From positions 95,864,926-95,928,925 of the forward strand of contig NC_073306.1 in the NCBI RefSeq assembly GCF_027595985.1: a stretch of DNA of 64,000 nucleotides, read 5' to 3'. Source of the stretch: Sorex araneus (lineage: Eukaryota; Chordata; Mammalia; Eulipotyphla; Soricidae). Both the position numbers and the translations under genes were made by a program. This document shows positions 48,001 to 51,000 of the stretch, piece after piece. Position 1 is the first letter of the stretch. Every line of letters starts with the position of its first letter. The notes beneath the pieces are model-generated. The model ran no database searches. It saw only the letters and a list, made by a program, of their open reading frames with translations, and was not told the origin of the DNA.

Positions 48001-51000
48001 ATTTCTCTCTCCAGCTCAAAGTTTCTTCCCTGTTAAGACTGGTCAAACTCGGGGGCTGGAGTGGTAGCACAGCGGGTAGGGTGTTGGCCTTGCACGCGAC
48101 CGACCTGGGTTCGATTCCCATATGGTTCCCTGAGTACCGCTAGGAGTAATTCCTGAGTGCAGAGCCAGGAGTAACCCCTGCGCCTTGCCGGGTGTGACCC
48201 AAAAAGCAAAAAAAAAAAAAAAAGACTGGTCAATCTGGGGGTATGCTGCCACCCAGCAGTCAACCTGTACTGCGGGGCGAGTGCATTAGCAGCCTGATGG
48301 GGCCTTCAGGCTTCCTGATACCCCAAAATTGCCGCTGTGCCTCTGGCCAAATCCCAAACACTTGGGACCAAGTTTTCCCAGAAAGTAAATATCCAAAAGT
48401 TAAGTATGTAGGAGTCACATCCACAAACCACCTCTGGCTCAGCTATACAGCTCATTTATCGCCTTGCTTCACAAACCCATAAATAAATCTCAAAAAAGAT
48501 CAAAAGTATCCATTTAAGTGCATTAATGGCCATGATTCAGAGACTCACAAATGAATCTCGGAAGTGAGCAGCTCACCACAGAGATGTCTCCCCACCCCAC
48601 ACCAGGCTGATTTCACCAGGGCACCTAGGAGGGGAACAGGTGTGTCTGTGCCCCTCCGCCTGCCCCAAATGAACCCAGCAGCTGCAAACCTCCAGAACCC
48701 AATCACCATCACGCTCATGGCCAACCTTCACAGGTTCGTCCCAAGCCCCCCATGCATGAGAATGATCCCCCTGAAAAATCCAGGTATGCGGGACCAGAAA
48801 CTGCAAACTCCAGGCTTCACGGAGCTGGGGATGGCTGACCTCCCTCCATCTCCCCGCCCTTCTGGTTTCCTGGCAGTTATGCCCAAGAACTGCCTCTGGG
48901 CACCACTCAAGCGCATTAACGGCCATGATCCAGACTCACAAACGAATCTCGGAAGAGAGTAGCACACTACAGATATGGCTCCATACCCCAAATATTTTAG
49001 AATTCCAGGAGCACACAGCTACTTTCACAGCCATGTGACACCTCACAAATAATTTAGCATCTGCCTAAGGGGCAGGCTGGGGTGGTGGTGGGAAGATTCA
49101 ATGTAAGGTGGTGGGAAGGTGCAATGGTGGTAGAATTGGTGTTGAAATATTGAATGTAAACAATTATTATGAACAACATTATAAAAAATGTAAAATTAAA
49201 AAAAAAGTAATGTGGAGTTCATGCATGCTTCAATCAGCTTAATCAGTGGTAAAATAAATAGCAGTACTCCTACATTAAAAAAAAAAAGGGAAAAAAATCT
49301 TTGGTCAAATTTCATCTTTGGCATGAATTCCAAAGAGTTCGCTGAGAATCTTACTTTAAAATCCTGCTTCAGGTTAACGGGGAAATCTGTGCATTGACAA
49401 AGGACCTTGGCAGGAAAGTCTGAGCCTAAGGGCCCCGCTCACCATCGGCGCTTTTGTGTAGGTATCCGCTGGCAGGAGGCATGAGCTGCTGGTGACTGCC
49501 TGCTTCCGAGTTGCTGTAGCCCTCCTGTGGCTCAGACAGAGTTCCTTGGGAAGACAAGTAGCTGGGAATGTCTGGAGGCAGATTGAGGTCCTCTGGAAGA
49601 GAGACACTGGTAATTTGCAAATGAAGTCCACAACTCTAACCAACATCTAGAAGACCATTTTGCTAATGTGTTCAACTTTGGTGCTACAAGCTAGGAGCAT
49701 GTTCTGAAGTTAGAACCTTAATGGCTCTTCATATTTCCCCTAAAATAATTTACCAGGCTGTTTTGTTTTGGGGTCACACCCAACGATGCCCTGGGCTTAC
49801 TCCTGGCTCTGCAATCAGAAATTGGAGGACAAGACCGTGACCCGTGGTGAGACAGCTGTGCTGCAGTGCATAGCTGGAGGGAGTCCCAGGCAGTGCTCTG
49901 GGAGCATACGGGATGCTGGGAATCAAACTCAGGTTGGCTACATGCAGTGCAAGTACCCTACCCATTGTACTATCTTAGTGCCCTGCCCACTGTACTATCT
50001 TCTCATTCCCCAGAATTTTTCTTAAAGCTTCATTTTCAAGTATTACAAAAAGATCCAAAAGCTAAAGTACGACATCTCATCCACACTCTAACAATCTTAA
50101 CAGAATAGTCCCAGTCTGATGATTTTGGGAGAGTGTGTGTTACACTGATCTCAGTCCTGAGTACACCTCTTTCCCTGTGAAATCACAATGGAAATAAGTT
50201 TTGGGCATTGAAGGAAAAATATGCATCCAATAATGTGATTTGTTTCTGGCCACGCCACGCAGTGCTCAAGGGTCCAAATGCAGTGCCAGGACCTGAATGC
50301 AGGTAAGATGCAGTAAGACAAGTGGCTTACCCACTGTACTATCGCTCCCCTACAGAGCGTTTTTCAGAAGAGCAAAGTTTTAAGGCAGTACCTGTAAATT
50401 CTTAAAACTAGTAATCAGAGAGGGTCAAAGAAGTCAGGCATTTTAACAGAAAAACTATTCCTTCCACCACATACTAGATAAGGCATCAAAGCTTCTCTCT
50501 TTCTTATAGCTTACACTGATTCTTATCCTATAGTATCAAGTACAAGCCACAGGAGTCACATGGGTGCTCACCTGTGTTGGTGATACTGTACTCTTCATTC
50601 TTCCTTCTCATGTGGTAAATAACAATGACCCAGATCAGAGAGGTGCCCACGACGCAGCATACCACCACAATGATGACGATGCCAACAGTGGTCCAGCCAT
50701 CATCTTCATGGCCCATGCTGCTTGGGGAGGCATCACAATTGGGGGACGACATGACATTCAGGTAAATGTGGCCCCGTTCTGTCCCCAAGGTATTGGACAT
50801 GATGCAGGTATACTTCCCTGCATCTTCCAGGCCCGTGTCGACGATGATGAGCAATTGGTTGGCCGCAGCAAAGAAATGGCGTTCTGTTACCAGCAGGGGC
50901 CCATCGTCCTTGGTCCAGTTGAGGCGAGGAGCAGGACTCCCTCCAGCTATGCACTGCAGCACAGCTGTCTCACCACGGGTCACGGTCTTGTCCTCCAAAG

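What the first reader, a model, noticed from the sequence alone, without database searches (positions are those of the whole stretch)
49822..50998. Perfect 65-bp inverted copy of an LRIG2 Ig-domain exon segment inside an intronic SINE
49,822-49,886 is identical (65/65 by eye) to the reverse complement of 50,934-50,998 in LRIG2 exon 9 and sits inside a SINE in the next intron, replacing a few SINE bases. Sharp ends and short matches at the joins (tt on the left, tcc on the right) suggest a templated insertion from polymerase template switching or patch repair, not retroposition: there is no A-tail or TSD. In the pre-mRNA, exon and intron copies would pair as a perfect 65-bp stem with a loop of about 1,047 nt that holds the exon 9 5' splice site. 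That could affect splicing, promote skipping or circularisation, or create an ADAR editing substrate over coding bases. An assembly error is the main alternative.
Basis: partly seen in the sequence, partly recalled or inferred. Interest (0 to 1): 0.86.

Follow-up and report, generated by a model that had tools for sequence, protein, structure and literature searches.

The report
Local inverted exon copy in intron
A 65-base piece of a protein-coding exon of LRIG2 was copied backwards, without error, into a repeat in the neighbouring intron about a thousand bases away, most likely by a DNA-copying slip of a known kind; it is real in this assembly and could fold the gene's RNA on itself, but no effect has been shown.

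Summary
Window 49822-49886 is the exact reverse complement (65/65) of 50934-50998, inside an LRIG2 exon at 50572-51021, minus strand. It is the longest exact inverted match in the window; shuffles give 15-18 nt. The genome search found the 65-mer at two places, copy and source. It interrupts a SINE, replacing a few bases, with no target-site duplication or A-tail seen. The SINE is 17% diverged, the insert 0%, so the insert is younger.

Best reading: a germline templated insertion by DNA template switching, reaching 1.1 kb: a known mutational kind in an unusual place.

New context: two more perfect local copies (156 and 49 nt, both direct), each found at two places in the genome search, lie within the 240 kb examined.

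Folding predicts the 65-bp stem and less pairing between two inverted SINEs flanking the exon, although the SINE duplex alone is the stronger. Splicing, circular-RNA or editing effects are untested. Assembly error is unlikely but not excluded; no reads were seen.

The parts
49822..49886 (+). Inserted 65-nt copy; on the + strand it reads as the LRIG2 exon's sense sequence, so in the LRIG2 transcript (minus strand) it is antisense to the exon
50934..50998 (-). Source: 65 nt of the LRIG2 Ig-domain exon (codes [22 protein letters not shown]), 23 nt from the acceptor
   Evidence: Pfam I-set PF07679 on the exon product
50572..51021 (-). LRIG2 exon (Ig domain plus, by eye, transmembrane segment), 450 nt
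49770..49998 (-). SINE1, interrupted by the insert; 25 of 143 aligned bases differ from the local consensus; its head carries a short partial tandem duplication
51307..51460 (+). SINE2 in the upstream intron, opposite orientation to SINE1; 15 of 152 aligned bases differ from the consensus (compared over 51291-51460); ends not mapped exactly
   Evidence: inverted arms I2 (72 nt, 82%) and I3 (36 nt, 81%)
49593..50571 (-). LRIG2 intron (979 nt) that holds SINE1 and the copy

Best explanation
A single germline event copied 65 bp of the LRIG2 exon, as reverse complement, into an older SINE 1.1 kb away. The likely route: a polymerase at a stalled fork or broken end left SINE1, primed on the exon's complementary or nascent strand at very short microhomology, copied 65 nt, and returned to SINE1 almost where it had left, losing 2-6 SINE bases. 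In the four-point scheme this is order 1-4-3-2 or, read the other way, 3-2-1-4. SHOWN: the perfect inverted copy, the interrupted SINE, the sharp ends, two places in the genome search, and that the copy is younger than the SINE. INFERRED: the polymerase route, its direction, and the germline event. Consequence (inferred, from folding): in the LRIG2 pre-mRNA the copy can pair with the exon; this stem crosses, and so in a nested fold excludes, the inner part of the SINE1-SINE2 pairing around the exon. My guess is a mostly tolerated, near-neutral change, with perhaps a one in four chance of a measurable effect on splicing, back-splicing or editing.
For: 65/65 inverted match; the genome search with the 65-mer returned 2 places, the copy and the source; the whole exon otherwise matches only a 69% paralogue on C2. 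A SINE consensus from 130 near-full copies (of 226 matches) fits SINE1 on both sides of the insert with a short loss. No repeat of the flanks and no A-run at either join, by eye. SINE1 differs at 25 of 143 bases, the insert at 0 of 65; probability 3.8e-6 if of equal age and neutral. The copied segment is conserved in LRIG-like proteins of the collection: my motif matched 19 of the first 20 and 35 of the first 60 of 120 held, so the exon is the original. Two other perfect local copies nearby. Precedent: PMC7954356 and PMC8421209 (passages).
Against: The 1.1-kb distance exceeds the about 100-nt range searched in the two published scans whose passages I read, so I saw no direct precedent at this reach. 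Overlaps are short (2 nt; 0-3 nt) against an average of 3.7 bp in tumour events of PMC8421209, and the right join has 1-2 bases that neither source nor SINE consensus explains unless SINE1 had diverged there. The source is wholly exonic, as an RNA patch would also give (at least about 15% of the surrounding +-2 kb is exonic, counting the two exons mapped). The two other local copies are direct, not inverted. No empty site in a relative was available.
Confidence: 0.75

Rival explanations
1. RNA/cDNA patch: a fragment of LRIG2 transcript was reverse-transcribed and captured at a double-strand break in SINE1 (class 2 templated sequence insertion).
For: The insert is purely exonic; microdeletion and microhomology without target-site duplication or poly(A) are the class 2 features given in PMC5110952 (section 9).
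Against: The source is 1.1 kb away in cis, where DNA template switching is simplest; no exon junction and no A-tail in the insert; a purely exonic local source by chance is about 15% or more. The two other local copies do not need RNA, though whether they are transcribed or exonic was not tested.
Confidence: 0.12
2. Assembly or library artefact (chimeric inverted read or mis-joined consensus).
For: Reads were not available. Protein searches with two junction-spanning reading frames found no independent copy (one LRIG-like exon hit, covering 24% of the query; none), which says little because such frames are seldom predicted.
Against: The locus lies in a 216.6-Mb sequence of an assembly of 65; the window has no N (the N runs of the 240 kb, gaps or withheld stretches, are at window coordinates 71509-71616 and -64499 to -62000). 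Both SINE halves continue cleanly on either side.
Confidence: 0.08
3. Reverse transcriptase switched template during SINE insertion, so that the SINE arrived with the LRIG2 piece.
For: The insert lies inside a SINE.
Against: In the SINE sense strand the insert is antisense to LRIG2 mRNA, whereas a switch to the sense mRNA would give the opposite; the insert is much younger than the SINE.
Confidence: 0.02

Closest known systems
Short-range replication template-switch mutations, four-point model (Walker et al. 2021, PMC7954356: passages read)
   Same: Reverse-complement copy of a nearby template; orders 1-4-3-2 and 3-2-1-4, reported there as the majority patterns, leave a single inverted repeat; most events add sequence.
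   Different: Copied length 65 against a reported median of 12 (maximum 128); distance 1.1 kb against an added search space of +-100 nt.
MMBIR-linked templated insertions, MMB-TI (PMC8421209, 2021: passages read)
   Same: Inverted copy of a nearby template; found as germline variants in people (103 and 99 events of at least 25 bp in two individuals).
   Different: Templates were sought within 100 bp; average microhomology 3.7 bp in the tumour events analysed, less here.
Template switching that creates RNA hairpin stems (Monttinen & Loytynoja 2022, PMC8794818: abstract and start of introduction read)
   Same: One mutation makes a reverse-complement repeat that can form a perfect stem in RNA.
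   Different: Those concern stems of RNA genes; here the stem joins a coding exon to an intron over a 1-kb loop.
Class 2 templated sequence insertion polymorphism (Onozawa & Aplan 2016, PMC5110952: abstract and sections 8-9 read)
   Same: No target-site duplication or A-tail; microdeletion and microhomology.
   Different: Those templates are distant and held to be often RNA-derived; here the template is local.
Reverse complementary matches flanking exons that promote back-splicing and skipping in C. elegans (PMC8330042: abstract read)
   Same: The LRIG2 exon is flanked by an inverted SINE pair.
   Different: The new copy pairs with the exon itself, not with the other intron; no RNA data here.

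Membership tests
Replication template-switch mutation / MMB-TI | Insert is a reverse-complement copy of a nearby template | tested here: met
   65/65 inverted, 1,112 bp from start to start
Replication template-switch mutation / MMB-TI | Template within the published search range (about 100 nt) | tested here: not met
Replication template-switch mutation / MMB-TI | Microhomology at both joins | tested here: inconclusive
   2 nt (TT) on the left; 0-3 nt on the right, depending on the lost SINE1 bases
Replication template-switch mutation / MMB-TI | Pre-event sequence known | tested here: inconclusive
   Only inferred from the SINE consensus and related copies; no orthologous empty site available
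Class 2 TSIP | No TSD, no poly(A); microdeletion, microhomology or added bases at the joins | tested here: met
   (by eye at the joins)
Class 2 TSIP | Template from a distant genomic region | tested here: not met
   Template is local
Class 2 TSIP | RNA-derived template | not testable with these tools
   The insert holds no exon junction that would tell
Class 1 TSIP / processed retrocopy | TSD of at least 5 bp and poly(A) tract | tested here: not met
   None seen at the joins
circRNA-promoting reverse complementary introns | Complementary sequences in both flanking introns | tested here: met
   SINE1/SINE2 inverted arms
circRNA-promoting reverse complementary introns | Back-spliced or skipped transcripts | not testable with these tools
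   No RNA data

The most novel reading that the evidence does not exclude
Long-reach (0.6-3 kb) error-free local templated copying of about 50-150 nt is a frequent germline mutation in this lineage (3 perfect cases in the 240 kb examined), missed by scans limited to about 100 nt; in LRIG2 it has created, in one step, a self-antisense intron that competes with an inverted SINE pair for the exon and so shifts linear, skipped and circular RNA.
Probability: 0.2. Interest if true: 0.65.

Novelty: new member of a known kind. Interest (0 to 1): 0.35.

Why it matters
It is a clean case of one mutation giving a gene a perfect 65-bp exon-intron stem, so the effect of exon-intron pairing on splicing and editing could be tested in a natural allele. 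The wider point, if a genome-wide count bears it out, is that local templated insertions reach well beyond the 100-nt range used in the scans I read.

Tried and rejected
Chance match: rejected. A retrocopy or paralogue as source: not supported; the 65-mer search gave two places and the exon search only a 69% paralogue besides. Reverse transcriptase switching during SINE insertion: wrong orientation and wrong age. The 48-nt inverted pair at 130755/131368 (window coordinates) looked like a second inverted event, but it sits in a longer imperfect match (156 columns, 88%), so I dropped it. Independent confirmation through junction-spanning reading frames gave nothing useful. Two literature searches that could have shown an exon copied backwards into a neighbouring intron (20 of 25 papers listed; 10 of 12 listed; listings only) showed no title on it, which is no proof of absence. 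A search for the SINE family name (5 papers, listing only) was not pursued.

Full report
Observation. The + strand at 49822-49886 is the exact reverse complement of 50934-50998: 65 nt, 1,047 nt between the arms. A scan of exact matches of 20 nt or more in the window (259 found, the 70 longest printed; the simplest seeds and very frequent direct words left out) puts it first; the next inverted match is 37 nt and SINE-like, and many other long matches belong to a tandem array near 13.5-14.3 kb. Ten dinucleotide shuffles of the window give 15-18 nt as the longest inverted match. In 240 kb it is still the longest inverted match within 20 kb outside low complexity (78 such pairs, 40 printed), but a SINE-SINE pair reaches 61 nt there, so length alone does not set it apart from repeats; its low copy number and clean ends do. 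The search of the own genome (2.406 Gb in 65 sequences) with the 65-mer returned two places, both here; that tool warns that it can miss common words.

Source. The source is inside a 450-nt exon on the minus strand, 50572-51021, with canonical splice sites. Its product has an Ig I-set domain and a transmembrane stretch (by eye); its best solved relative is LRIG1 (4u7m), and one of the 120 listed protein hits, P0009 at 81%, is named LRIG2 by its source. The copied segment codes [22 protein letters not shown]; a motif that I wrote for it matched 19 of the first 20 and 35 of the first 60 hits, of 120 held; I did not look into the misses. So the exon is the original and the intron copy the newcomer. 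The whole exon matches itself, its 65-nt copy and a 69% paralogue on another sequence. The exon number could not be checked.

Target. A consensus was made from 130 near-full SINE copies (of 226 matches) in the 240 kb and six further loci. SINE1 lies on the minus strand over about 49770-49998; its halves align to the consensus on both sides of the insert. In + orientation the consensus reads ...GGAATTACTCCTGGCGGTGC... and SINE1 reads ...GAAATT[GGAGG...GAGTCC]CAGGCAGTGC.... The left join shares TT with the source. At the right, SINE and source share TCC only if SINE1 had already changed beside it; with consensus bases the overlap is 0-1 nt and 1-2 bases stay unexplained. None of the site variants printed (a partial catch of the 130 copies) has the changed form. 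Between 2 and 6 SINE bases are lost. No duplication of target bases and no A-run is seen.

Age. SINE1 differs from the consensus at 25 of 143 aligned bases; the median over the 130 copies is 17%. The insert has 0 of 65 differences; if it were as old as SINE1 and neutral the probability would be 3.8e-6. From 0 of 65 alone the 95% upper age is 21 or 11.5 million years at assumed neutral rates of 2.2e-9 or 4e-9 per site per year (rates assumed, not from a call). So it is younger than the SINE but need not be very recent.

Mechanism. Published template-switch events of order 1-4-3-2 and 3-2-1-4 leave single inverted repeats, which is what this is; copied lengths there have median 12 and maximum 128, with +-100 nt of added search space (PMC7954356, passages). 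MMBIR-linked templated insertions occur as germline variants in people, 103 and 99 of at least 25 bp in two individuals, templates sought within 100 bp (PMC8421209, passages). The present event fits these but for its reach and its short overlaps. Class 2 TSIPs share the join features but use distant templates, held to be often RNA (PMC5110952, abstract and sections 8-9). Ordinary retroposition is rejected. A switch of reverse transcriptase from SINE RNA to LRIG2 mRNA would leave LRIG2 sense sequence in the SINE sense strand; the opposite is seen.

Context control. In the contiguous 240 kb I listed exact matches of at least 20 nt: 1,666 direct and 1,101 inverted pairs; 56 had 3 or fewer copies in the stretch, and the 40 longest of those were printed. 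Judged after the fact by flank scores of 9 or less on both sides, 4 of these 40 are clean: this 65-nt inverted pair, a 156-nt direct pair (78325/81236, window coordinates), a 49-nt direct pair (-59557/-58912) and a 24-nt AT-rich direct pair 64 nt apart. A separate self-comparison gave 15 low-copy local pairs (32 nt or more, 85% or more, within 20 kb), of which 3 are perfect: the same 156, 65 and 49; of the other 12 only the 88% inverted one was looked at more closely. The 156 and the 49 were each found at two places in the genome search. So perfect local copying at 0.6-2.9 kb recurs here, but the sample is one region and the two others are direct. The 156-nt copy at 81236 begins right after a SINE A-tail in a stretch with other duplications, so it may have another origin.

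RNA consequence. Folding 2,251 nt of pre-mRNA (51650 to 49400) pairs 61 of 65 exon bases in register with the intron copy. The exon is also flanked by an inverted SINE pair (arms 72 nt at 82% and 36 nt at 81%). With the copy held unpaired, 120 SINE1 bases pair with SINE2; with it free, 46 do (minimum energies -765.2 and -805.3 kcal/mol). The inner SINE arms and the exon-copy stem cross, so they exclude each other in a nested fold. Against a clear win for the new stem: taken alone the SINE2-SINE1 duplex is the stronger (-223.0 kcal/mol with the insert, -223.6 without it) than the 65-bp duplex (-148.5), so which forms in the cell is open. The loop of the new stem holds the donor, which folds locally in the model; the exon arm begins 23 nt from the acceptor. 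Reverse complementary matches in flanking introns promote back-splicing and skipping in C. elegans (PMC8330042, abstract), so a shift in that balance is a fair test, but nothing here shows one. Minimum-energy folds of 2 kb are rough, and proteins and co-transcriptional splicing are ignored.

Assembly error. The locus is in a 216.6-Mb sequence and the window has no N; 2,608 N lie elsewhere in the 240 kb. No reads could be examined. Junction-spanning reading frames gave no independent support.

Verdict. Real in the assembly; well explained as a templated insertion of a known kind, with a longer reach than the surveys I read, in a notable place. Ordinary in mechanism, moderately interesting as a natural exon-intron stem and as a hint of frequent long-reach local copying.

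Noticed in passing
G000:C5:95943250-95943405 (L012) and 95946161-95946316 (L013), outside the window: A perfect 156-nt direct copy, found at two places in the genome search, 2.9 kb apart; one copy starts right after a SINE A-tail in a stretch with other duplications.
   Followed up: partly
G000:C5:95805368 and 95806013 (both L026), outside the window: A perfect 49-nt direct copy, found at two places in the genome search, 645 bp apart, with unrelated flanks.
   Followed up: partly
window 49960-50000: The head of SINE1 carries a partial tandem duplication (about 30 nt, copies diverged), so probably older than the insert.
   Followed up: no
window 13495-14343: A tandem array of about 24-25-nt units (CCTGTGTAACCTCAGAGAGCCAGC and variants) seen in the exact-match scan.
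   Followed up: no
window 55948-56400: A long purine/pyrimidine simple repeat, seen through the repetitive reading frames.
   Followed up: no
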